Virus record (IMG/VR): IMGVR_UViG_3300027917_000074
Location: 1 to 43,741 of that record
Length of the DNA: 43,741 bases
Reading direction: 5' to 3' (one strand)
From: a virus
Shown here: in pieces, positions 954 through 43,676 of the stretch
Numbering within the stretch: the stretch's first letter is position 1
Layout: each line of letters starts with the position of its first letter
Translations under genes and position numbers: made by a program
Notes under the pieces: model-generated
The model's database searches: none
What the model was told of the DNA's origin: nothing
The model's input: only the letters and a program-made list of their open reading frames with translations

Positions 954-3755
954 ATGGCTACAGGGATAGAAACCGATTTTACAGTATATCCAATCTCAAA
1001 ATGTATTAGGAAAACTAGTTCAACAGATACAGTACATACGGTTCAAGCATTCTATTCTTGGTTAATGGCTTTGTTTGATGAGCCAGGATATATGAGTTAC
1101 AAAAAACCAATAGAATATAAAACTCCAGTTTCATACACAATGACAAATGGATGGTTTATAGATAATGGTGATGGTAGTGAAGCTCTTAAATATCTAACTG
1201 GGGGTTCAATAGATACATCAGGTTATGGGGATGGTAGTGCTGATGAAATTTTAATGATTGATTTAGACGCTACTACAGACTGGGTAGCTAGTGATAAAGA
1301 TAAGAATATACAACATTCTGGGAGTACTACAATTGGTCGACTACTTGCATATAAGAATGATTACCCAACAGATAACTATGCAAGAATTTGGGTTAGAAAT
1401 AATGAAGAAGTAACAGCACCTGTCGATGATAATACAATTGCTACTATTGATGGAATTGGTGCAGGAACTATTGATGAAGATGTAAGTTCTGGTAATGAAA
1501 TATATTGTAATCTTTATACTATTGCGTCTTTTGCTGGTACACCAAACCCACAGGTTTATATTAGACAGAAACATCCTGTTGATACAACCAATAACCCATC
1601 AACTTATGTGCGTATAGAAGAATGGTCTACATTAGATAACTTTGATCCAGGAACTATTGATGTTTTAATACCTGTAAAACTTGGAGGAAACTTAATAGAT
1701 AGTGGTCTTGTAAACGTATATGTAAGACACACAGGAGATACATTTACACATACTGCAAATGTTGATCTTAGTGCTGGTGATAGAACACCAGTTGCTACTG
1801 AAACAGCAGCAGATGAAGTAAATATAACTACTGGTGAACATTATCTATTATATGATAATAGTAGCACAGGAGCTTTTAGTGCAGGTGATTTTATACAAAA
1901 TACTTCTGGAGGGGGTACTGTTGCTCCAGATTGGCATGCAGAAGTTGTTTCTGTAACAGAGTTTTCTGATGACACTACAGGTGTTTTAGTTCTTAGAGCA
2001 TTAAGTGGAACAATACCAGACGGTGATAGTATATATGTTGGTAGTGTGGATTCTGCTGATGCTAATGGAACTGAAGGAGATACATATATAAGTTATAGTA
2101 CTGTAACACAAGCTCCAGATGGTGATGATTTAGGAAAACCTGTTGAAGGAGGAACTAGTGGTGCTCATAGGATTCTTAGAGGGTTTGATACTGCTGAAAA
2201 GAAATGTGTACTGCAGGTATATCATACACATGGTTCAACAGATAGTCAATCATATACTGGGTCTGGTAGAAATTGTTTATACATAACATTTTCTAGTGGG
2301 GAACAAGTAGATGCTCCTAGTGGTGGTAGTTCTGATATGGATGTTGTACTAGATGCTGATTCAACTACCCTTACTTCTGGATTTTCTGATATTACTATAG
2401 CTCATGTAAATGGTACTTTAGATTACAAGAGTAAAAATGGTGATTTAACAGTAGGGGAAAGAGTTACATGGAATGCAGGAGCAGATTCTGCTATAGTTGT
2501 ATATGATGACTCAGAATTTCCTACAACTACAGGTAATATTACATTAGCTAATGTAACTAGTGATCCTGTTGAAGATGATGTATTGACTGGTGATATATCT
2601 GGTAATTCAGTTACAGGAGATTCAGGTGGATTTACGGATGCTTATAAGGAAGGATTTGAATTTTCATTACAATCTACTGGTGCTGAGTATGCTGTATTTA
2701 TTGAAGGAGGTTCTATATATCAAGCAGGTAGAACCTTTGAAGATATTTATGCATATCTACAATTCAAATGTCGTGACGGTGAAACCGATACTTTTAGTAC
2801 GTCAGACGGTTCTGGGTATACAACAGTTCAAGGTCAGTTTTATATTACAGCATATTCATCTTATTCTGTAAGTAAAGTTGCTCCTTTTGGTACGTTAGCT
2901 GGGGGTGTTTTCTTTGGTGCTCAGGGTGTATGGGTGCAGGGAATGCATTCTTCAGATAACAACAGTTTGAAATTAACAGATGATAGTGGTACTTTAAGAC
3001 AACCTTACACATCTATTACTATTACAATCAGTAATACAAGAATTGGTGATACAATAGCAGTATTCTTAGAAGATGGTTCAACAGGCTTACCAGACACTGA
3101 TCAATATACATGTGCTTCACCTGCTCTTGAAGGAGATAGTACTTTAGTAAAAGCTGAACCTGCAACTTCTTTTCCAAACGATACTCCATCTACAGGAGCT
3201 GTTTATGTAGTTGCTCTTGATGAACAACAAAGACATAGATATAGGTATAGTAGCTGGACAGGTACTGTTTTAACATTAGCTGCTCAAGTTAATGGTACAT
3301 GTGACTCAAATACATCTACTACAACTATTATAGATAGTGGTAAATTCTCAGCAGGTGTTGTACGTGGAGATATTTTACGTAGAACTAGTGACAGTGCATG
3401 GTGTTATGTAGCAAGTGTTGTTAATGCTAGTCAGATTAATACTACTGTTCTTAGTAATGGTGATGCGTGGGCACAGAATGATTTATTTGAAATAAATTCA
3501 TTAGTCCAGAATTATAATGCTTCTGATACATTTTTTATTCCATATTTAGAGGCAATAGAATCAACTGGTAGTGATGGTACTCCTGGTAGTGAGACAGAGA
3601 GTTTGACATATGTTTCAAATAGATCAGTTATTATTGTAGCTAGAAATTCTATACATAGTGACTATTATATAGAACCATTTGAAACAACTGGCGATATTTT
3701 GGTTACAGGATTAACTCAGTCAATTATTAGAAATGAAGATACTGTTTACTCTTAA
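954..3755 (+). CDS. Large virion structural protein (appendage/head-fibre type), 933 aa
   Basis: A long Thr/Ser/Gly/Asp-rich, Lys-poor protein typical of phage beta-structured virion components. The N-terminal module (about residues 28-75, with VQAFYSWLMALFDEP and YTMTNGWFID) is a pattern shared with other phage structural proteins. It has the same TVQ-FY core as the next gene's N-terminus (TVQEFYQAVRQWEDDP), so the two probably attach to the same virion site. The C-terminal ~190 residues are paralogous to the partial protein at the window's left edge. The start at 954 is preceded by GGAAGGTGAT; an out-of-frame ATG lies 4 bases earlier at 950. No enzymatic motif was found. Function as an appendage is inferred from family and position. 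Confidence 0.8.
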   Translation: MATGIETDFTVYPISKCIRKTSSTDTVHTVQAFYSWLMALFDEPGYMSYKKPIEYKTPVSYTMTNGWFIDNGDGSEALKYLTGGSIDTSGYGDGSADEILMIDLDATTDWVASDKDKNIQHSGSTTIGRLLAYKNDYPTDNYARIWVRNNEEVTAPVDDNTIATIDGIGAGTIDEDVSSGNEIYCNLYTIASFAGTPNPQVYIRQKHPVDTTNNPSTYVRIEEWSTLDNFDPGTIDVLIPVKLGGNLIDSGLVNVYVRHTGDTFTHTANVDLSAGDRTPVATETAADEVNITTGEHYLLYDNSSTGAFSAGDFIQNTSGGGTVAPDWHAEVVSVTEFSDDTTGVLVLRALSGTIPDGDSIYVGSVDSADANGTEGDTYISYSTVTQAPDGDDLGKPVEGGTSGAHRILRGFDTAEKKCVLQVYHTHGSTDSQSYTGSGRNCLYITFSSGEQVDAPSGGSSDMDVVLDADSTTLTSGFSDITIAHVNGTLDYKSKNGDLTVGERVTWNAGADSAIVVYDDSEFPTTTGNITLANVTSDPVEDDVLTGDISGNSVTGDSGGFTDAYKEGFEFSLQSTGAEYAVFIEGGSIYQAGRTFEDIYAYLQFKCRDGETDTFSTSDGSGYTTVQGQFYITAYSSYSVSKVAPFGTLAGGVFFGAQGVWVQGMHSSDNNSLKLTDDSGTLRQPYTSITITISNTRIGDTIAVFLEDGSTGLPDTDQYTCASPALEGDSTLVKAEPATSFPNDTPSTGAVYVVALDEQQRHRYRYSSWTGTVLTLAAQVNGTCDSNTSTTTIIDSGKFSAGVVRGDILRRTSDSAWCYVASVVNASQINTTVLSNGDAWAQNDLFEINSLVQNYNASDTFFIPYLEAIESTGSDGTPGSETESLTYVSNRSVIIVARNSIHSDYYIEPFETTGDILVTGLTQSIIRNEDTVYS

Positions 3756-3775
3756 TATAGTATGAGGGTAATAAT

Positions 3776-5818
3776 ATGCCTATTGTAATACAAGTATTTC
3801 CTGACTTAGACCCTGCTATTATAGAGGTCAAAGCTCCTACTACAGAAGTTACTGTTCAGGAATTTTATCAAGCTGTAAGACAGTGGGAAGATGATCCAGC
3901 CTCACTGTCTTACAGGTCACTAATTTCTGGTGCTGGTGGTGAAGACTTGGGTGGTAGTACTTCTGTTGGATATACATTTACTATGCAGAATGCTAAAATC
4001 AAGTTTGAGGATCGTACTACTCCATTAGATGATGGTAGTGGTAGAACTTGTGATGCTACTAATTCCCAAGGAATACAGTTATATGTTGATGATGCTGACT
4101 TTGTTACTTCAGGTGTGTATGCTGGTGCAATAGTTGTTAATTTAACAACTAGTGAAAGAGCTACAATAATTGATGTTATAGATGCAAACACAGTAAGACA
4201 TTTTCGTTTGTCAGGGGCTGGTAATCAAGGATGGACTAGTGGGGATGAATATATAATCCTTCCTAATGTTATATGTAATATAACAGGAGGTAATTTAGTA
4301 GCTGTTGATAGTAATGGGGATGCAATTGATCCTGTTTATCAATCAGTAGGAGTTAATGTAATTCGTAGTAGTGCTTCGTCAGGCACAGTGTCACAACAGT
4401 CCTCAATAGAATACTCTTCTTTTAATGGAGGAGTAACTATTGATACAACTTCTTCGTACACTGGCACAACATTTCCTGTGGGAACTCCACAGCAGCCTGT
4501 TAACAACACAACTGATGCTTTAGCTATTGCTGCAGCTAGAGGTTTAACAAAGTTCTTTATAAAAGGAAATATAACTTTAGATTCAGGAACTGATTTTCAG
4601 GAAATGATTATTGAAGGTGAGTCTAAAACAAAAAGCGTCATCACTATATCTGATGCAGCAGATGTTTCTAATTGTGAATTTTATCATGCTGAGATTACTG
4701 GTGTATTAGATGGTGGTAATGTATTGAAGGATTGTTTAATAAGCACACTTAGTTATGTAAATGGTTATATAGAAAATTGTGTCTTGTCTTTTGCTACTAT
4801 AACTTTAGGTGGTAGTTCTGAGGCTCATTTCCTTGATTGTTGGAGTGGTGCAGTTGGTAATGATATTCCTATAATAGATATGGGGGGTTCTGGGCAAGGA
4901 CTTGGGATGAGAAATTATAATGGTGGTATTAAGTTAATTAACAAGTCTGGTGCAGAAAAAGTTAGTATTGATCTAAATAGTGGTCAGGTTGTTTTGGATT
5001 CTACTGTTACTAATGGAGAAATAGTAATAAGAGGTGTAGGAAAGTTAACAGATAATTCTAATGGTGCAACAGTTAATGCTGGTGATCTACTTCGTAGAGA
5101 ATCTATCACAGAGATTACATGGGATACTATATATATTGATACGGTTAACGGTTCAAGTGGAACATCGTTCCCATTAGGAACAGCAGGAAATCCAGTTGAT
5201 AATATTACTGATGCTAGAACTATAGCTGATAGACAAAATATAAGTAAGTACTCTATAAAAGGATCAGTATCTTTAGATCAAAGTTACTCAAATTGGGAAT
5301 TTTTAGGAGCAGGTTCTATTTTAAATGATTCTATTGCTTTGAATGGACAGACACTCTCATTATGTAAATTTGTTGACATAAGTATATCTGGATCTTGTAC
5401 TTCTTCAAATATTCAGTGTGAGAGATGCTACTTAACAAATGTTTCTGGTATTGCTGGAAGCCTTATTGACTCAGCAATTATTGGTACTCTCACATTAGGT
5501 GGTGTTGGTTCAATTTTAGGAGCACAACAGTTAAGAGGAGCATCATTACCAACTATTATAGATATCAATGGTGCTAATAGAATATTTCAAGCAAGTCTTT
5601 TTGGGGGTACATTTCAAATAAATAATTCACAAGCTGGTTCAGTTGTACAACTAGGACTAAGATGGATGGAATCTGTTACATTAGATGCCTCCAACACAGG
5701 AGGTACTGCAATACTTACTGGGAATGGTAATCTTACTGATAATAGTTCTATGTCTGTAACTAATACGCTATATAATGTTGATGGTATTGCAGATGGAGTG
5801 TGGACTTATGAGCGATAG
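3776..5818 (+). CDS. Virion structural protein with two beta-solenoid-like repeats, 680 aa
   Basis: The N-terminal ~220 residues match a recognisable phage structural module: VQEFYQAVRQWEDDP, then GGEDLGG, then GGNLVAVDSNGDAIDP and SIEYSSFNGGVTID. Two long internal repeats follow, about residues 220-430 and 452-665. Each starts with YIDT/TIDT, a G-T-x-FPxGTxxxPV(N/D)N motif and a KxxIKGxxxLD strand, and ends in GxGxLTDNS. The repeats look like short right-handed beta-helices, as in fibre shafts. The protein ends in DGVWTYER, a typical terminal motif before variable tips in this family. It overlaps the next gene by 11 bases. It is probably a head or tail fibre-like protein; the exact attachment site is not known. 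Confidence 0.8.
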   Translation: MPIVIQVFPDLDPAIIEVKAPTTEVTVQEFYQAVRQWEDDPASLSYRSLISGAGGEDLGGSTSVGYTFTMQNAKIKFEDRTTPLDDGSGRTCDATNSQGIQLYVDDADFVTSGVYAGAIVVNLTTSERATIIDVIDANTVRHFRLSGAGNQGWTSGDEYIILPNVICNITGGNLVAVDSNGDAIDPVYQSVGVNVIRSSASSGTVSQQSSIEYSSFNGGVTIDTTSSYTGTTFPVGTPQQPVNNTTDALAIAAARGLTKFFIKGNITLDSGTDFQEMIIEGESKTKSVITISDAADVSNCEFYHAEITGVLDGGNVLKDCLISTLSYVNGYIENCVLSFATITLGGSSEAHFLDCWSGAVGNDIPIIDMGGSGQGLGMRNYNGGIKLINKSGAEKVSIDLNSGQVVLDSTVTNGEIVIRGVGKLTDNSNGATVNAGDLLRRESITEITWDTIYIDTVNGSSGTSFPLGTAGNPVDNITDARTIADRQNISKYSIKGSVSLDQSYSNWEFLGAGSILNDSIALNGQTLSLCKFVDISISGSCTSSNIQCERCYLTNVSGIAGSLIDSAIIGTLTLGGVGSILGAQQLRGASLPTIIDINGANRIFQASLFGGTFQINNSQAGSVVQLGLRWMESVTLDASNTGGTAILTGNGNLTDNSSMSVTNTLYNVDGIADGVWTYER

Positions 5819-33920: not shown

Positions 33921-34167
33921 ATCCACATCCTTTCAATGCATGAGCCAATAAATAAAATACATCTGATTCTAATCTTTTAAATCCACTTACTGTTCCACTT
34001 TTAGAAATAGATAAACTTTCACCATATTCTGATATTTTTTGTAAATTAACTTTATAATTTCCTGTACATTGATCACCAGTTTTTTCATTAATAATTTCTA
34101 TAACACCAAGACTCCTCTTCTTTTCTTCATCCCCATAAGGTAGTAATTCTATAGTACATCTAATCAT
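33910..34167 (-). CDS. Conserved small phage protein, 85 aa
   Basis: The pattern MIRCTIELLPYGDEEKKRSLGVIEI, then GNYKVNL, then GTVSGFKR, then DVFYLLAHAL is one I recognise from short hypothetical proteins spread among phage early regions (beta strand, GDE turn, IGxxxI strand, GNYxV strand, W/F-xLL helix at the end). The function of that family is unknown to me. It overlaps the RNA ligase gene by 8 bases. Confidence 0.65.
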   Translation of the reverse strand: MIRCTIELLPYGDEEKKRSLGVIEIINEKTGDQCTGNYKVNLQKISEYGESLSISKSGTVSGFKRLESDVFYLLAHALKGCGYEV

Positions 34168-35083
34168 TCTTTATCTCCTTTACAAAATTATTTTCCAACA
34201 ACTTTTCCTTATAATACTCAGGAAATCCCACTATGCTCTTTCTAAGTATTTGATCTTTAAATATTTTCCATAGAGCTATTTTTATTTCTTCTTGTTCTTC
34301 TGCAACTATGTCGGATTGTATGTGTTTAATCAATTTACCGATATCTTTAGGATCGTTCTCTAATTGATCTAGTTCTTTCAAAGCCTGTATAGCTTTATCC
34401 CAACGTGCCTCTGATCTGAATGCTTCTATTAGTACCTCAAGCTTCCCTTTTCCTGTGTGTGTTGTCTTCCATTCTTTATTTTGGACTTCCTTGAATTTCT
34501 CAGAAACGTACTTACCACACATCACTCTATAAATATGTCCTCCAATATCTATACCTTTATTGTAATTCTTAGCCACTATCCCTTCAATTTTAACTCCACC
34601 TAGAAATGATTCAGTTTCAAGAAGTTTAAATATATCTTCAGGATTGTCTACTTTTCCGTAGAATAATAAAGGTACTACATCAATATCTAATTCTTTTGCG
34701 TATTCTTTCAATACATCATAATCAGAAACATACTCATCTTCACTTTTAACAGAAAAAAGAGCCATATGATTTTTAGGTATTTTATCATATTTTAATAAAT
34801 TATGTTTCGGTTTTTGTAAGTACTCAACTGTAACTTGTGTGTTATTTGGTATTCTGTCTTGTATTTTTATTGAATACTCTACAGCCTCTATAAACATTTT
34901 CTCAGGAGCATCCAATACTATTTCTTTTCCTTTACTCCTGCACTTAAGTTCATTGTCAAACTTACCTAGTGAGTACTGCGATCCATCGACTTTTTCTGTA
35001 ACTTCTACTTCATCTTCAAAAATACCTCTAATATAATTATTTCCTATAGCAAAAATCTTTGGGAATTTTGTTAATTGATTCAT
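34160..35083 (-). CDS. RNA ligase (nucleotidyltransferase superfamily), 307 aa
   Basis: ATP-dependent RNA ligase motifs stand in order: motif I EKVDGS with adenylated Lys31; a motif III-like region VTVEYLQKPKHNLLKY (84-99) and MALFSV (107-112); motif IV KIEGIVAK (165-172); and motif V around Lys191/Lys196 (MCGKYVSEKFKEV). The size matches phage Rnl2/Rnl5-type enzymes. It would seal 3'-OH/5'-phosphate RNA ends, as in tRNA repair after host nuclease attack. The C-terminal ~100 residues are helical and may set substrate choice. It lies 10 bases after the RNR gene in the same transcription unit. Confidence 0.8.
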   Translation of the reverse strand: MNQLTKFPKIFAIGNNYIRGIFEDEVEVTEKVDGSQYSLGKFDNELKCRSKGKEIVLDAPEKMFIEAVEYSIKIQDRIPNNTQVTVEYLQKPKHNLLKYDKIPKNHMALFSVKSEDEYVSDYDVLKEYAKELDIDVVPLLFYGKVDNPEDIFKLLETESFLGGVKIEGIVAKNYNKGIDIGGHIYRVMCGKYVSEKFKEVQNKEWKTTHTGKGKLEVLIEAFRSEARWDKAIQALKELDQLENDPKDIGKLIKHIQSDIVAEEQEEIKIALWKIFKDQILRKSIVGFPEYYKEKLLENNFVKEIKND

Positions 35084-35093
35084 CTATCCTCCT

Positions 35094-37766
35094 TTATATT
35101 TCACACATACCTGTCTTACATTGAACGTCTTCTTCATTTAAAGTCTTCTTAGCTTCTTTTGTGTACTTCTTTATTTCAGCATCAGTCAGTCTATAATACA
35201 CTTGTTTTTCTCTACTATTATCTCTATAAACTGTTACTCCTTTAAGGTCTGATAGGTATTCCATTAAATATTTGTCCAAATCTTTAACAGTTGTTTTCTC
35301 AGGTAGTATAATAGTTTTTGATACACCTGAATCTGTATACTTTTGTATAGTTGCCTGTACTTCTAAATGTTCTTCAGGTTTTAAGTCTAAACTGTCAACA
35401 AACCAATCTTCCTTAACATTTTCTATAGCTAGTGGATGAATATAAATTCTCTCACTAACTCTGTCTTTTCTTCTATAACCTTTAAATGGAAGAGGTTCAA
35501 TACCCCCCACTACATCTGCTAATAAGCTAGTTGTACCTGTGGGAGCTTGTGTTATTAAGCAGGAGTTTCGTATTGAATGTTCTCTTATCTCCATTCTTAT
35601 TTTAGCAGGAAGTTTTTTTATAAAGGATGCTCTCATGTAGTCTATTTTATTATATTTCGGAAAAGCTCCCTTTTCCTTAGCTAATTCCACAGAAGCTAAA
35701 TATGATGTGTCTCTTATAAATTTGTATAATTTTTCTATTTCATTTATACATTTATCCGATCCATATCTTATCTTTTTCATAAACAAATAATCTGCTAACC
35801 CCATAGTACCTAAGCCTATACGTCTTGCATTTTTGGCTATTTCTTCTTGTTTAGGTATGGGAAAGAAAGATAAATCAATAATATTATCCATAAATCTAAT
35901 TGATTTATATATAACATCTTCCAACTTTTTCCAATCAGTATTTACATTTGTAACAAACTTAGGAAGGACTAATGAACCTAGATTGCAAGTATCGAATTCA
36001 CCAAGAGGCTGTTCACCGCAATTAGATACATTTAACCCACCAGACCAATAAGTATGACTATACCCACTTACTGTAATATCATACACATCTTCAGTAGATA
36101 TATATTCTTTTTCAATAATCTCAAAAGAAGTTTTAGACCTACCTATATACTTTCTTTTTTTTATAGCTTTTTGTAAAGATTCTACTTTATACTTTTGTAA
36201 AAAACCAATATGCTTATCAAATAAATGTATATCTGTAGAAATATTGACATCGTAGCTGTTTTTACAGGCATAAATACCATTACTAAACTTAGTTGTTTTA
36301 CTAATATTTTTTGTAATATAAGAACTTATTCCTACAGAAGATAACATCTCTTGAACATCCTCAACAATTCTATAAGAAGAAGCTCTCAAAGAAACTCTGC
36401 TATACTTCTCTAAGACAGTTCCATTTGCTGTAAAAAGTCCTCTTAGAAAGGACTTAACTATTATAGGAGTACTAAATTTGAATCTATTAGGTACATATCT
36501 ATAATACGTTTTAGGTAACTCTTTATAGTTTATAGAGGTTGCTACTTCAAATGCTCCTTTTTTTAGTTTATCTCTATTTTTTAACAGTAAATGTGATATT
36601 TCTGAATCAAAGTAATCTTTGTCATTCTCCCCAATAATTAAATATACTAAATTATTAGAGGCTTTATGTACAGACCCATCTCCAATTACTAACCCATCTA
36701 TAACAATATTATCTATAAACTCTTCATTATTTGTAATAGACCCCCGTAAACTATCTATAGTCTCCGCTTCATCTACTTTTATTTTTTCTCCATTAGATAA
36801 AATCTTATGATTTTTAGTTCCATAGAATGAACCTGCAGTTGTTTTATATTTATAAACTTCTTTTACTCCTGAATAATGTATATTAGTTACTTGAGTCCAC
36901 CCATTCTCACTCCATATAGAATCCCCTACTTGTAGTGCTCCTAGAGTACTAATCCCTCTTGGTGTCAATACCGTAGCCCATTTAGGCTGGCATGGGTTAG
37001 TACAAACAATTGGGGAGAAGTAATACGTATTATTTTTCCTTAAATTATCCCAATTTACTAAGCCTGGTTCTGCGTGATCAATCATATTTTGTAATATCCT
37101 ATCCCATATATTTCTTGCTTTAACTGTAGTATATACTTTTCCTGCAAATTTAAGCTCCCAATCTTCATTATTTTCTACTGCTCTAAGAAATGTGGAATCT
37201 ATTGCTACTGAGATATTGAATTGAGTTAATTTATTATGTTCTATTTTTGCGTCTATAAAATCTAGTACTTCAGGGTGGTACACACTACACATAGCCATTC
37301 CTGCTGATCTTCTAGCTCCTCCTGTTTCTAGTCGTTTCCCAACTTCATCAAACATCTCTATAAATGATATCATTCCACTCGACTTACCTCCTCTTGTTTG
37401 AAGAGGAGTTCCTTTTGGTCTTAAATTAGAAAAGTTTATTCCGTTACCACCACCATAAGCAGATACCACACCATAATACTTTAATGTTTCTAGTATTGAT
37501 TCTATAGAGTCTTCAATTGGCAAAACATTACAATTACTAGTAGCAGGTTTTAGCTTCCCTACATTCCTTAATATTCTTCCTGCAGGGATAAAATACATAG
37601 GGTCTATAATTGATATAAAATCGTCACAATGTTTTTCTTGGTTTGATCTTTCATTTTTTGAGGTTTCTTTACATATTCTTTCTGATAATTGTTCCCATTT
37701 AGTTTCTTCTTCCCAAAAGTATCTGCTTTTAGCTATTTCGTAAGCATTATCACTCAACTCCACCAT
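35094..37766 (-). CDS. nrdJ: Class II ribonucleotide reductase containing an intein, 890 aa precursor
   Basis: Removing the intein (residues 259-582) leaves a 566-residue enzyme. The catalytic layout follows adenosylcobalamin-dependent RNRs: Cys79 (TSNCNVLP) and Cys594 (CNLGS) as the reducing pair, Cys583 in NPCGE as thiyl radical Cys with Glu585, and C-terminal Cys883/Cys888 for re-reduction. The 11-residue spacing 583-594 and 5-residue spacing of the tail pair match the Lactobacillus class II enzyme (408/419, 731/736). TGGARRSAGMAM and APTGTTSLLA are further family blocks. It reduces ribonucleotides to deoxyribonucleotides for phage DNA synthesis without oxygen. It is shorter than most class II enzymes, as in other phages. 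Confidence 0.85.
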   Translation of the reverse strand: MVELSDNAYEIAKSRYFWEEETKWEQLSERICKETSKNERSNQEKHCDDFISIIDPMYFIPAGRILRNVGKLKPATSNCNVLPIEDSIESILETLKYYGVVSAYGGGNGINFSNLRPKGTPLQTRGGKSSGMISFIEMFDEVGKRLETGGARRSAGMAMCSVYHPEVLDFIDAKIEHNKLTQFNISVAIDSTFLRAVENNEDWELKFAGKVYTTVKARNIWDRILQNMIDHAEPGLVNWDNLRKNNTYYFSPIVCTNPCQPKWATVLTPRGISTLGALQVGDSIWSENGWTQVTNIHYSGVKEVYKYKTTAGSFYGTKNHKILSNGEKIKVDEAETIDSLRGSITNNEEFIDNIVIDGLVIGDGSVHKASNNLVYLIIGENDKDYFDSEISHLLLKNRDKLKKGAFEVATSINYKELPKTYYRYVPNRFKFSTPIIVKSFLRGLFTANGTVLEKYSRVSLRASSYRIVEDVQEMLSSVGISSYITKNISKTTKFSNGIYACKNSYDVNISTDIHLFDKHIGFLQKYKVESLQKAIKKRKYIGRSKTSFEIIEKEYISTEDVYDITVSGYSHTYWSGGLNVSNCGEQPLGEFDTCNLGSLVLPKFVTNVNTDWKKLEDVIYKSIRFMDNIIDLSFFPIPKQEEIAKNARRIGLGTMGLADYLFMKKIRYGSDKCINEIEKLYKFIRDTSYLASVELAKEKGAFPKYNKIDYMRASFIKKLPAKIRMEIREHSIRNSCLITQAPTGTTSLLADVVGGIEPLPFKGYRRKDRVSERIYIHPLAIENVKEDWFVDSLDLKPEEHLEVQATIQKYTDSGVSKTIILPEKTTVKDLDKYLMEYLSDLKGVTVYRDNSREKQVYYRLTDAEIKKYTKEAKKTLNEEDVQCKTGMCEI
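36021..36992 (-). mobile_element. Intein with LAGLIDADG endonuclease inside the RNR gene, 324 aa
   Basis: The intein starts at Cys259 (CQPKWATVLTP, block A) and ends at Asn582, just before catalytic Cys583; splicing would join NP to CGEQ. Block B is GSFYGTKNHKIL (Thr, His). Block F is VYDITVSGYSHTYWSGG with its His. The penultimate residue is Ser, not the usual His. A dodecapeptide endonuclease domain is present: first motif IDGLVIGDG (about 356-364), second LRGLFTANG (441-449). The second motif has Asn where the catalytic Asp/Glu is expected, so DNA cutting may be lost or reduced to nicking. The site is the RNR active-site motif, a known hot spot for inteins. Confidence 0.88.
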
Positions 37767-37890
37767 CTATTTCCTCTCCTTTGTTCAATCCTTCCTTGTC
37801 AATAAATTGTTGTATAATGTAACTATATTCGGGGTAGTCTTCCTCATTTGGTTTATAGTATGTTTCTTCCCATACAAATTCCTCATTTAT
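37750..37890 (-). pseudogene. Small acidic gene lacking a standard start codon, 46 codons
   Basis: The frame INEEFVWEETYYKPNEEDYPEYSY and onward to GGVE, with TGA at 37750-37752, looks coding: acidic, aromatic, and overlapping the RNR start as other genes here overlap. The first codon at the expected distance (9 bases) after AGGAG is ATA at 37888-37890, not ATG. A 33-codon ATG frame at 37886 exists in another phase but looks unlike a protein. Either ATA is used, or an ATG was lost by G-to-A on the coding strand. Function unknown. Confidence 0.5.
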
Positions 37891-38068
37891 TATTTTTTAC
37901 TCCTAAGTATTTTTGGCTAATTATAAATGCATCATCTTTACATTTCTCACATACTTTTGTTACAGACCCATAAAATCTCATTAGAGAGTATTTGAGTTCT
38001 TCTTTCTCATATTCTTTGTGGCATAGAGGGCATTTTACCTTATCCCATTCTTTTATCTTTCTTCTCAT
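37883..38068 (-). CDS. Small zinc-finger protein, 61 aa
   Basis: The product MRRKIKEWDKVKCPLC and onward has Cys13-x2-Cys16 and Cys40-x2-Cys43, a four-Cys zinc ribbon, then a short C-terminal helix. The start is uncertain: ATG 38068 is chosen because longer versions (ATG 38086 or 38125) overlap the previous gene deeply and lack a ribosome site; only a weak AGAAAAAG precedes 38068. This gene is intact, unlike most of its neighbours. Function unknown; several four-Cys ribbons occur in this operon. Confidence 0.55.
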   Translation of the reverse strand: MRRKIKEWDKVKCPLCHKEYEKEELKYSLMRFYGSVTKVCEKCKDDAFIISQKYLGVKNNK

Positions 38069-38285
38069 AATATTTCTTTTTCTCATAATGAAGGATAATT
38101 CTATAATCGTTAATTCTATGATCATAAATACTTTTGAATTCTTCTACAGGTAGAAATGATATCGGTGTTTTATATTCTTGAATTCCATAAGTTATAAGTC
38201 TAAATGCTATTAATTCTCCTTCAACATCAAATACTTCTACTTCTGCTTCGTCTACTCCTTGGGCTATTTTAAATTTCATACTCAT
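38040..38285 (-). CDS. Small hypothetical protein, 81 aa
   Basis: The start at 38285 (MSMKFKIAQG) follows AAAAGGAAAATAAGT, which is also the end of the upstream interrupted zinc-ribbon gene. The product has alternating strands (AEVEVFDVEGELIAFRLITYGIQEY) and then a helix (PVEEFKSIYDHRINDY) and a Lys-rich end. Codon reading is clean with no internal stop. Function unknown. Confidence 0.6.
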   Translation of the reverse strand: MSMKFKIAQGVDEAEVEVFDVEGELIAFRLITYGIQEYKTPISFLPVEEFKSIYDHRINDYRIILHYEKKKYYEKKDKRMG

Positions 38286-38287
38286 AC

Positions 38288-38449
38288 TTATTTTCCTTTT
38301 GTGTTGCACACAGGGCAAGTAGGTTTAAAGTTATCTCTATTCCTGTTTCTTTTAGATAATAATAGTCGCTATAAATACCTACAGCATCTCCATTCTTTTA
38401 CTGTGAATACATGCCTACCATTTACATGTTTAAAATATAAAGTTTTTAT
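38288..38449 (-). pseudogene. Zinc-ribbon gene interrupted by in-frame TAG, 53 codons plus stop
   Basis: Reading from 38449 gives IKTLYFKHVNGRHVFTVKEW, then RCCRYL, a TAG at 38369-38371, then RLLLSKRN, and it ends KPTCPVCNTKGK with TAA at 38288-38290. The two halves lie in one frame, and Cys-Cys plus CPVC make a plausible zinc site. No ATG is in frame; the candidate first codon is ATA at 38447-38449. A Trp (TGG) at the TAG would fit the context. The gene ends 2 bases before the start of the next, as for intact genes here. Confidence 0.5.
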
Positions 38450-38450
38450 C

Positions 38451-38648
38451 CTACATTATATATTCTCCTAGAACAGCCTCCATTTCTGCTGCACATAAAA
38501 CATCTGATTCATCTGTCGGACAACCAAAATCTATCCATCGTTCCACGATGTCTATATCCTTAAAGATTCAACCATTTTTTTCAGCTATCCATTTAGCTGT
38601 GTTTAAAATAAATGCATCTGCCTCTTCTTTGTTTTTAAACTTCTTCAA
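38451..38648 (-). pseudogene. Small gene interrupted by in-frame TGA, 64 residues if read through
   Basis: A TTG start at 38648, 8 bases after AGGTGG, opens MKKFKNKEEADAFIL, then NTAKWIAEKNG, a TGA at 38568-38570, and continues in the same frame IFKDIDIVERWIDFG, PTDESDVLCAAEMEAVLGEYIM to TAG 38451-38453. Both sides are clearly coding in character (amphipathic helices, acidic). Trp in place of TGA (NG-W-IF) would fit. Function unknown. Confidence 0.5.
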
Positions 38649-38660
38649 TTATAACACCAC

Positions 38661-38840
38661 CTAGTTTGTAACCCAAAATATTATAATAAGGAGGGCAGTA
38701 TTAAAACTTCCTCCTAAATAAATATCCATATTTGTAGTTAAGGGGAATTCAATAAAACTCATAGAAATAAAAGAGAGTACCCATAGTGTTACTACAAATG
38801 TTCTAGCTATTTATTTACTTAGACTTTTTTTGTTTAACAT
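38661..38840 (-). pseudogene. Small membrane-protein gene interrupted by early TAA, 58 residues if read through
   Basis: ATG 38840 follows AAAGGAG and gives MLNKKSLSK, then TAA at 38811-38813, then in the same frame IARTFVVTLWVLSFISMSFIE, a break, and GSFNTALLIIIFWVTN to TAG at 38661-38663. The part after the TAA holds two hydrophobic segments typical of a small two-pass membrane protein. Alternatively the ATA at 38808-38810 replaces a start ATG directly after the previous gene. Either way one codon is wrong for normal expression. Confidence 0.5.
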
Positions 38841-39603
38841 TTTTCTCCTTTATAGGTTCTCCCACTTGTTCATATGTAGCTCCATTTAATTTCCTGTCTT
38901 CTACGTCAGCATAGATTTTATCCAATACTGTATCTAAAGAGAGATCACAATATTTATCTATCCAATCTGCTATGAAGTACAGTCTTCTAGAACACTTCAT
39001 TACACCAAATAGAATAGGGTCTTTCTTCTTTTCTATTTCTTTCTTAGTTAGTTTAGTTGATTTACCTTTAGGATCATAGTGTAATATAACGAAATTGTCA
39101 AATGTTTTTAAATTCTTAGCACGTTGTAGTTCTTGTAATACAGGTTCAGGAATTATTCTACAGAAGTTCTCTATCCAATCCAATTTTATACTCTTACTTA
39201 TAACATCCTTAAACTCTATTAAGTCTTCTTCTGTTAAAAACAATTCAAAGCCATTTGTCTTTAGGTATATTTCTTTTTGTATCCTCTCCTGTTCTTTTTC
39301 AAACGTTTCGTATAAAGCAGTTTGCCCACTATCTTTTGCTTGTTTCATTAGTTTTTGTAGCTTTTCTAATGATTCTATTTGAAGAGGACTCATTCTTAGT
39401 CTCATTGCTTTGAGTTCTTTAAAGAACTTTGTTGGTGAGTATCGTAGCTGTCTTAATGCTTTAAACACATCTCCTGGGTATTTTATTATAACTTCTAATA
39501 GTTTGGCAATATTTATCTTGAATTTAGCTTTATCAAGATTAGTAGAGAATGTGCTATTTGATATTTGGTAAGTAGCAGAAGGTGTACTATCAGCAGTTAA
39601 CAC
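38815..39603 (-). CDS. Conserved phage protein, main open part, 262 aa
   Basis: The clean frame opens with GTG 39603, with a GAGG 8 bases upstream that could allow restart. The true gene seems to begin at ATG 39705 and to be cut by a TGA at 39616-39618 (see next entry). The protein is helical and charged, with a C-terminal domain containing DPILFGVMKCSRRLYFIADWIDKYCDLSLDTVLDKI, a block seen in large-phage proteins of unknown function. No catalytic motif is evident. It overlaps the following small membrane-protein frame by 26 bases. Confidence 0.65.
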   Translation of the reverse strand: MLTADSTPSATYQISNSTFSTNLDKAKFKINIAKLLEVIIKYPGDVFKALRQLRYSPTKFFKELKAMRLRMSPLQIESLEKLQKLMKQAKDSGQTALYETFEKEQERIQKEIYLKTNGFELFLTEEDLIEFKDVISKSIKLDWIENFCRIIPEPVLQELQRAKNLKTFDNFVILHYDPKGKSTKLTKKEIEKKKDPILFGVMKCSRRLYFIADWIDKYCDLSLDTVLDKIYADVEDRKLNGATYEQVGEPIKEKNVKQKKSK

Positions 39604-39615
39604 CCCACTTGTTCC

Positions 39616-39705
39616 TCAATCTGTAGAAGTAGTGTCGTCACTTGTGTCTACACTTACTCTAAAATTGTCAAATACTTTCAATGATGTACCATCTGATGAT
39701 ATCAT
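39616..39705 (-). pseudogene. N-terminal 29 codons of the preceding protein, cut by TGA
   Basis: ATG 39705, with an AAGGAGAAAGAAA ribosome site and a 4-base overlap with the upstream gene, starts MISSDGTSLKVFDNF, then RVSVDTSDDTTSTD, then TGA at 39616-39618. After it the same frame continues GTSGVLTADSTPSATY into the 262-residue protein. The signals at this ATG are much better than at GTG 39603, so this is probably the authentic start of a 296-residue protein with one stop inside. Confidence 0.55.
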
Positions 39706-39824
39706 TTTCTTTCTCCTTTTTTCTTTCGTAGTATAACTTTTCTTTCGGAAGGTTCTTCTGTATGAAATTCATATCCTAGTTTATTTGTTAATAGATATAA
39801 TTTATTATATACATCCAAAGTGGA
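39702..39824 (-). pseudogene. C-terminal part of a frameshifted gene
   Basis: This frame reads DVYNKLYLLTNKLGYEFHTEE, cut here for length at Glu, then PSERKVILRKKKGERK and TGA 39702-39704, which overlaps the next ATG in the usual ATGA. It has no good start. It continues the protein begun at 39991 if one base is restored near 39805-39815 (for instance GG in place of G after TGGAT). Total length would then be 96 residues. Confidence 0.5.
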
Positions 39825-39991
39825 TTAGTACATGAGATAATATAAGGTTCAAAATCTTTATTATCTATTACTCTTTTCTTGAGTAGTGAGTGTTCAAGTT
39901 TCTTATATTTATTATGCAAACGTGTAAATTCAAATACTAATTCCTCAAAGTTCTTTTTTCTTACGAATTTAGGAAATTTTAAACACTTCAT
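39788..39991 (-). CDS. N-terminal part of a frameshifted small gene, 67 aa as read
   Basis: ATG 39991 has a strong AAGGAGG site. The product MKCLKFPKFVRKKNFEELVF continues as a basic/acidic helical protein to about CTNPLWM and then runs into an unconvincing tail (YIINYIY) and stop. The downstream frame carries a better continuation to 39702. It is therefore probably a 96-residue protein broken by a one-base deletion. Function unknown. Confidence 0.5.
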   Translation of the reverse strand: MKCLKFPKFVRKKNFEELVFEFTRLHNKYKKLEHSLLKKRVIDNKDFEPYIISCTNPLWMYIINYIY

Positions 39992-40003: not shown

Positions 40004-40378
40004 TTATTTAAAAAATATTTTCCACCATTTTTCTTTATTTTCTGTAGCTTCTTCTTTAGTTGTTTCTTCTCCTGTTTCTTTATCAAAAAATCTAGCTCCT
40101 GTGCTTTCTGGTAAGAATCCCATTACTATAGAATTAAATTGATCTACTGCTAAACCTAAAACTTCTTCATACTTTTTTATACATTTCTTACACAAATCCA
40201 TATGTGCATATTGTGTTTTACATTTTTGATATTCTATTTCCCATTTAAGAACAACACCACTTTTCTTCTTCTTTGTTCTTTCTAGTAACATTACAGGCTC
40301 ATGAACTACAGCTAATTCATCTACATTTTCTGTTTCAAAATCACAAAAGTCACATTTATGTATGCTTTTTGTTGCCAT
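40004..40378 (-). CDS. Zinc-finger hypothetical protein, 124 aa
   Basis: Cys-x2-Cys near the start (HKCDFCDF, Cys9 and Cys12) and CKKC in the middle (DLCKKCIKKYEE) form a four-Cys zinc site resembling those of bacterial Zn-finger proteins that begin with a CDxC knuckle. A long helix follows CKKC. The last ~35 residues are Glu/Lys-rich (ETGEETTKEEATENKEKWWKIFF). GAGGATATAA precedes the start. The gene is intact. Function unknown. Confidence 0.65.
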   Translation of the reverse strand: MATKSIHKCDFCDFETENVDELAVVHEPVMLLERTKKKKSGVVLKWEIEYQKCKTQYAHMDLCKKCIKKYEEVLGLAVDQFNSIVMGFLPESTGARFFDKETGEETTKEEATENKEKWWKIFFK

Positions 40379-42423: not shown

Positions 42424-42903
42424 CTATTCACTTTCTTCATACTTCTTAGCATCAAATCCTATTGTACCTCCTGTTACTTCCAACACAAAGTTTCTCCACA
42501 TGTGCTTCCACTTTCCTCTATTGAACCAATTATACTTGTCTGCTTTTTCAGGATTCTTTCCAAAATCTTTAGGTAGTCCTAAAGTTTCTCCCCCCATACC
42601 TTCAAACTGTCCTACAAAAACATCCAAATCAAATTGGTTGAGTTTGCAATCCACATTTACACAAGAATGAGCTAACGAGCAGTATTTATCTATAGGATCA
42701 ACTTTAATTGTTGTCATTCCTATTGTTGGCTTTATATAGTCTAAAGGTGTAAAGAAAAACACACCTGCTGTCCAATGACATATCCCATAGTAGAATTGTG
42801 AATACTTCTTGTTGTTTCCATATTTAAATATAACTCTCCCATCAAGCCAAGTAATGCCACAGCTTACTAGGTTAGTCAAGTCTTTATCTTTTTTTACTAC
42901 CAT
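42424..42903 (-). CDS. Hypothetical protein linked to Mom-like gene, 159 aa
   Basis: Not recognised. AAAAGGAG precedes ATG 42903, and the start shares one base with the Mom-like gene's stop. It is aromatic-rich (FYYGICHWTAGVFFFTPLDY, RGKWKHMWRNFVL) with a Cys cluster (KYCSLAHSCVNVDCKLNQFD) that may bind metal. Tight linkage to the Mom-like gene suggests it works with it. There is no nuclease or transferase motif I can name. Confidence 0.55.
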   Translation of the reverse strand: MVVKKDKDLTNLVSCGITWLDGRVIFKYGNNKKYSQFYYGICHWTAGVFFFTPLDYIKPTIGMTTIKVDPIDKYCSLAHSCVNVDCKLNQFDLDVFVGQFEGMGGETLGLPKDFGKNPEKADKYNWFNRGKWKHMWRNFVLEVTGGTIGFDAKKYEESE

Positions 42904-43676
42904 TACATTCTCCTTTTAGGATATGGTTTTATGAGAGGCTCAAGAACACTATACATTTCTTTCTTTTCTTTTTTTGAACCAAGTAGCTTTATGTATCTAG
43001 CTTTTGGTAATCTCTCTTTTACAAAAAGATTAGGTTTATCCTCCACAAACTTTTCCATCTTCTTTCTTCCACAGAATTTATATTTCTTGTAGAAGTCTCT
43101 GTCATTCATCCATATCTTTCCATCTTTAGTATACACATCATAATGTTTTGTTTTTCCAAATCCCAAGTAATACCAATTAGTTGCCTGATATAGAGTTCCT
43201 ATTTCTCCTGCTAGTGGGTCAGAAAAAGCTATACAGTATTTATATCCGTCTTTTTCAACTCTTTTTAAACCATATGCTATCAGCTTGCTTCCACTATGGG
43301 GATGTGCCCAATGACAACAAGCTCCTCTAGTAAGTTGTATTCCTTTTTTAGCATACTTTTCTCCTATTAAAGGGGCATAAGGGTGTCCTCCCTTATTGGT
43401 ATTCATTGCTTGGAAGTATCCAAAACAAACTACACCTGCTAAATACCCATCGTAGAAAATACCATAGTGTCTTTGTGTAGTTCCCATTGTGCCTAACCAT
43501 TCATATTCTAGTATAACACCTTTAGCGTCTTGGTAAGACACTTCATCTAGTTCCGCTTTTTTTATATCTGACTCTGGGTATTTACACGGAAATAACTCAC
43601 CAAAGAATCTTACATCACTTTTCTCTTCTCTAATTAATCTTTGGTGGGCTTTACCAATATCTAGTGCCTGTTCCAT
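42903..43676 (-). CDS. GNAT-fold protein related to phage Mom DNA modification, 257 aa
   Basis: Residues ~70-190 match the Mom-type GNAT layout: HYGIFYDGYLAGVVCFG (strands with a G-V/F-x-G turn), ITRGACCHWAHPHSGSKLIAYGL (central strand then acetyl-CoA-type loop and helix), YKYCIAFSDPLAGEIGTLYQATNWYYLG (the F(A/S)DxxxGxxGTxYxAxxWxxLG block shared with Mom). In phage Mu, Mom alters adenine so that restriction enzymes cannot cut. Here the N- and C-terminal parts differ, so modification of another target is possible. ATG 43676 is used because no other in-frame start exists, though the nearest AAGGAG is over 20 bases away. Confidence 0.65.
   Translation of the reverse strand: MEQALDIGKAHQRLIREEKSDVRFFGELFPCKYPESDIKKAELDEVSYQDAKGVILEYEWLGTMGTTQRHYGIFYDGYLAGVVCFGYFQAMNTNKGGHPYAPLIGEKYAKKGIQLTRGACCHWAHPHSGSKLIAYGLKRVEKDGYKYCIAFSDPLAGEIGTLYQATNWYYLGFGKTKHYDVYTKDGKIWMNDRDFYKKYKFCGRKKMEKFVEDKPNLFVKERLPKARYIKLLGSKKEKKEMYSVLEPLIKPYPKRRM

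What the first reader, a model, noticed from the sequence alone, without database searches (positions are those of the whole stretch)
37750..39991. Cluster of six small genes each carrying one disabling lesion, most of them compatible with G-to-A on the coding strand
Seen directly: TGA at 39616-39618, TAA at 38811-38813, TGA at 38568-38570 and TAG at 38369-38371 each interrupt a frame that reads as protein on both sides. ATA stands at the start position at 37888-37890 (and possibly 38447-38449). One gene (39702-39991) has a frameshift. The neighbouring genes at 37883-38285 are intact, and the other ~41 kb of the window shows no such lesions. If the lost codons were TGG (Trp) and ATG (Met), all changes but the frameshift are G-to-A on the coding strand. 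Competing explanations: gene decay after a change of host, deaminase-type hypermutation, local sequencing or assembly error, or A-to-I RNA editing that would restore Trp and Met in every case.
Basis: partly seen in the sequence, partly recalled or inferred. Interest (0 to 1): 0.78.

Follow-up and report, generated by a model that had tools for sequence, protein, structure and literature searches.

The report
Clustered broken accessory genes in phage
A 2.2-kb block of small genes in an otherwise intact, poorly related bacterial virus carries about five disabling changes. They are most simply read as ordinary gene decay or local consensus error, and there is no positive evidence for a special G-to-A mutation process or RNA editing.

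Summary
The cluster is real, but smaller and less uniform than described. All the named triplets are present. Independent evidence supports five lesions: TGA 39616-39618, TGA 38568-38570, a one-base-type frameshift in 39702-39991, loss of a normal start codon at about 37888-37893, and, more weakly, TAA 38811-38813. The TAG at 38369-38371 and the ATA at 38447-38449 lie in a stretch that is not clearly coding in that frame.

TGA 39616 is the best case. The peptide before it matches a conserved N-terminus (HMM E = 6.6e-6) that is joined to its core in 42 relatives, with no stop in any. No comparable lesions appear elsewhere in the window.

The G-to-A reading is nearly tautological: any TGA or TAG is one G-to-A from TGG, and any ATA is one from ATG. 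Coding-strand G is not depleted (17.9% against 19.4%, p = 0.19), third-position G is unchanged, and the conserved core of the one gene with relatives is intact. RNA editing cannot explain the frameshift, and nothing supports it.

Both TGAs are followed within 8 codons by a GTG with a Shine-Dalgarno-like sequence, so partial expression by restart is possible. Best reading: recent loss of dispensable early genes. Local consensus error cannot be excluded without reads.

The parts
39702..39991 (-). Small gene split by a frameshift (net loss of one base, or gain of two); the switch lies between about 39788 and 39827
   Evidence: Strong SD and ATG at 39991; coding score positive in one frame before and another after
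38815..39705 (-). Member of a widespread phage family (phrog_10081, labelled transposase) whose N-terminal segment is cut off by TGA
   Evidence: Core: PHROG E = 5.4e-21, relatives to 48% identity. N-terminus: HMM E = 6.6e-6
39616..39618 (-). In-frame TGA after codon 29
39601..39603 (-). GTG with an upstream AGGA, a possible restart for the 262-aa core
38661..38840 (-). Probable small membrane protein gene interrupted by TAA 38811-38813
   Evidence: AAAGGAG plus ATG at 38840, hydrophobic open frame after the stop; weak coding score
38451..38648 (-). Small gene (TTG start) interrupted by TGA 38568-38570, with a possible GTG restart at 38544-38546
   Evidence: 0.30 per codon on both sides; restart scan
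38288..38449 (-).
38040..38279 (-). Intact small gene inside the block
37883..38068 (-). Intact small gene with paired cysteines inside the block
37750..37893 (-). Small gene with ATA ATA where the start codon is expected; it overlaps the ribonucleotide reductase start
   Evidence: AGGAG just upstream, coding score 0.19 per codon

Best explanation
A block of small, dispensable early genes of a siphovirus-like phage has recently lost function through ordinary mutations: two or three nonsense changes, one frameshift and one lost start codon. Shown: the lesions are in the sequence, coding signal persists on both sides of the well-supported ones, and the genes beside them are intact. Inferred: that the lesions are real in the virus rather than in the consensus, and that these genes are not needed in its present setting. 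The core of the gene at 38815-39705 may still be made by restart at GTG 39603, without its N-terminal segment.
For: Coding potential flanks the stops and the frame switch. A family N-terminus is separated from its core by a stop only here: 0 of 42 relatives have a stop between them. The core keeps 28 of 30 conserved positions, so the damage is recent or partial. Lesions are confined to 37.75-39.99 kb. Nonsense changes outnumber frameshifts, unlike the indel-led damage of raw long reads.
Against: Phages usually delete dead genes quickly. If the lesions fell at random, 6% of substitutions giving a stop implies roughly 35-60 changes in 2.2 kb, which cannot be checked because no close relative was found. 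This is a single virus record, probably metagenome-derived.
Confidence: 0.48

Rival explanations
1. Local error in the consensus of a metagenome contig, for example where coverage drops because most of the population lacks this block or carries a divergent version.
For: Single virus record. No second copy was found in IMG/VR. Another contig of the same collection, L089, shows frame breaks in the same family (match length 446, not a multiple of three), and gene-fragmenting errors in assemblies are documented (PMC12007338, abstract seen).
Against: One frameshift against two to three nonsense changes and a start loss is not the indel-led pattern of long-read errors. The short-read error rate would be too low to give so many stops. 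The other 41 kb is clean.
Confidence: 0.32
2. Gene fission with restart: the two TGAs separate short upstream frames from downstream frames that start at GTG and are still translated, so at least the gene at 38815-39705 is not dead.
For: Both TGAs have an in-frame GTG within 8 codons preceded by an SD-like AGGA. Random in-frame positions show this for GTG 0.2-0.4% of the time, and for ATG/GTG/TTG 1.6%. Many family members consist of the core alone.
Against: Noticed after the fact; spacing of 9-10 bases is long. The second fragment of the gene at 38451-38648 would be only about 31 residues. It does not cover the TAA, the frameshift or the missing start.
Confidence: 0.1
3. A burst of strand-biased cytosine deamination (C-to-T on the + strand, G-to-A on the coding strand) across the block.
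For: TGA 39616, TGA 38568 and ATA 37888-37893 are each one such step from TGG or ATG. One invariant acidic residue (67 of 67 relatives E or D) is Lys at 38953-38955, also one such step.
Against: Compatibility is automatic for these codons. G is not depleted (17.9% against 19.4%, p = 0.19; third position 12.7% against 13.1%). Six of 64 family members (the window among them) have one such unique departure. No shared neighbouring-base context. The frameshift is not explained.
Confidence: 0.07
4. RNA editing, readthrough or an altered code restores all the proteins.
For: Frames continue after the stops.
Against: All three stops terminate intact genes. The frameshift is not repairable by editing, and no slippery heptamer was seen by eye in its overlap. 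No tRNA genes were found.
Confidence: 0.02

Closest known systems
Pseudogenes and decayed accessory genes in phage genomes
   Same: Small non-structural genes interrupted by stops, frameshift or start loss, with coding signal still visible on both sides
   Different: About five close together in an otherwise intact 43.7-kb genome; reality in the virus not verified
Gene-fragmenting consensus errors in assemblies (PMC12007338)
   Same: Premature stops and frameshifts in one contig
   Different: Local to 2.2 kb and dominated by nonsense, whereas long-read errors are mostly indels
APOBEC-type G-to-A hypermutation
   Same: Stops at possible Trp positions
   Different: No G depletion, no motif, and a frameshift present
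PHROG 10081 family (the gene at 38815-39705)
   Same: Core matched at E = 5.4e-21, 28 of 30 conserved positions kept
   Different: N-terminal segment separated by a stop

Membership tests
Pseudogene cluster (gene decay) | Frames with coding signal on both sides of a disabling change | tested here: met
   Met for TGA 39616, TGA 38568 and the frameshift, weak for TAA 38811, not met for TAG 38369
Pseudogene cluster (gene decay) | Intact orthologues in relatives | tested here: inconclusive
   Met for the gene at 38815-39705; no relatives found for the other broken genes that were searched
Pseudogene cluster (gene decay) | Lesions present in the reads | not testable with these tools
   No reads available
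G-to-A hypermutation | G depleted and A enriched on the affected strand | tested here: not met
   G 17.9% against 19.4%, A 41.6% against 41.0%, p = 0.19; a loss of about 10% would escape the test
G-to-A hypermutation | Changes in a consistent neighbouring-base context | tested here: not met
   The base after the changed position varies: G at 39616, A at 38568 and at the ATA start
Recoded stop codon | The codon is not used as a terminator | tested here: not met
   TAA, TAG and TGA all terminate intact genes
A-to-I mRNA editing | A-to-G difference between cDNA and DNA | not testable with these tools
   No RNA data
PHROG 10081 | Significant profile match over the core | tested here: met
   E = 5.4e-21, residues 55-230

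The most novel reading that the evidence does not exclude
A strand-coordinated cluster of cytosine deamination in a phage genome, limited to one early-gene block, left by a host DNA deaminase and disabling several genes at once.
Probability: 0.06. Interest if true: 0.6.

Novelty: new member of a known kind. Interest (0 to 1): 0.2.

Why it matters
If the lesions are real, the block marks genes that this phage can lose, and it catches phage gene decay before deletion. If they are errors, the record should be flagged. The case also shows that 'all compatible with G-to-A' says little, because TGA, TAG and ATA are always one such step from TGG or ATG.

Tried and rejected
Searches for close relatives of the phage failed. 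Megablast of 30-43.7 kb in INPHARED gave no match. IMG/VR scans with the genes at 40004, 34160, 954, 32032 and 38450 found no relatives. The Mom-like gene and the 38815 gene have relatives, but without shared gene order. Four of the small broken genes, read through with X, gave no significant match in phages, and one of them none in GTDB genomes. G-to-A hypermutation was tested by composition and not supported (a first composition table used wrong frames for several genes and was replaced). Stop recoding was rejected by terminator usage. A programmed -1 frameshift was considered; no slippery heptamer was seen by eye in the overlap. A regex search for relatives of the frameshifted gene's tail and of the CPVC stretch in the fetched loci gave nothing. 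The literature searches found only general background.

Full report
WHAT THE WINDOW IS. The window is a whole virus record of 43,741 bases with about 30 rightward genes (tail tape measure, J-like tail fibre) and about 25 leftward genes. The leftward genes include an exonuclease-family protein, an RNA ligase, a ribonucleotide reductase with a LAGLIDADG-bearing insertion, and a Mom-family protein. No close relative was found in INPHARED or IMG/VR.

CHECKING EACH LESION. A codon model was trained on 19 intact leftward genes. In 26-codon pieces, true frames have a median of 0.17 per codon and wrong frames -0.18. TGA 39616 has 0.29 before and 0.17 after. TGA 38568 has 0.30 on both sides. The frameshifted gene has 0.13 in its first frame and 0.16 in its second. 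The frame starting at ATA 37893 has 0.19. For TAA 38811 the downstream frame scores only 0.04 and the upstream piece is 9 codons long, but AAAGGAG and ATG at 38840 mark a start. The stretch with TAG 38369 scores 0.04 and -0.01, and a sliding view shows another frame scoring best near 38395. I therefore do not count that TAG or the ATA at 38447 as established lesions.

RELATIVES. Of the broken genes, only the one at 38815-39705 has detectable relatives. Its core belongs to phrog_10081; the label 'transposase' is an annotation, not a tested function. Many relatives carry an N-terminal segment of the type MI..D..KL.IFENF. A profile made from 24 of them, without the window, finds the pre-stop peptide of the window as its top hit among all window frames, E = 6.6e-6, with the next hit at 0.63. 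In 42 relatives the segment lies in the core's own frame with no stop between; one, L089, has it in another frame. TGA 39616 therefore interrupts what is one gene elsewhere. Core-only relatives also exist, so the N-terminal segment may be dispensable.

CLUSTERING. A strict detector of frames that continue through a stop found two cases in the window, 1.05 kb apart, and 16 in 1.23 Mb of other viral loci (0.13 per 10 kb), with no two so close in the three loci that had two. The rest of the window is covered by complete ORFs.

G-TO-A. The pattern is weaker than it looks. Every TGA and TAG is one G-to-A step from TGG, and every ATA is one step from ATG, whatever the true history. TAA would need two steps and the frameshift none. 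In the affected frames coding-strand G is 17.9% against 19.4% in intact leftward genes (p = 0.19), third-position G is 12.7% against 13.1%, and Trp is 1.31 against 1.36 per 100 codons. This excludes a heavy burst but not one that changed about a tenth of the G. One invariant acidic position of the family is Lys here (38953-38955), also one such step, but 6 of 64 family members, the window among them, have one such unique departure.

RESTART. Both TGAs are followed within 8 codons by GTG with an SD-like AGGA 9-10 bases upstream. Random in-frame positions in this genome show such a site for GTG 0.2-0.4% of the time, and for ATG, GTG or TTG 1.6%. This was noticed after the fact, so it is a lead, not proof. 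It suggests that the 262-aa core may still be expressed.

ERROR OR DECAY. About 6% of random substitutions in these genes give a stop, so two to three stops imply some 35-60 substitutions if they fell at random, against one indel. That is not the pattern of uncorrected long reads, and it is too dense for short reads even at single-read depth (own knowledge). It fits relaxed selection or selection for loss better. Without reads or a close relative I cannot exclude a local consensus fault, and I put decay at about 0.48 and error at about 0.32.

VERDICT. This is a real cluster of about five disabling changes in apparently dispensable small phage genes, ordinary in kind. The special mechanisms proposed (deaminase hypermutation, RNA editing) have no positive support.

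Noticed in passing
35094-37766: Ribonucleotide reductase large subunit interrupted in frame by a LAGLIDADG-bearing insertion, intein-like.
   Followed up: no
42903-43676: Mom-family protein (E = 5.9e-21) with relatives up to 69% identical in viral contigs that share no other gene order with the window, suggesting it moves horizontally.
   Followed up: partly
34160-35083: RNA ligase-family protein (PF09414) without close relatives in IMG/VR.
   Followed up: no
954-5818: Two large genes (933 and 680 aa) near the left end without Pfam or PHROG match.
   Followed up: no
L089: In this contig the same family is broken by frame changes: the N-terminal motif lies in another frame and the core match length is not a multiple of three.
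   Followed up: partly
38953-38955: Lys codon at a position that is Glu or Asp in 67 of 67 relatives.
   Followed up: partly
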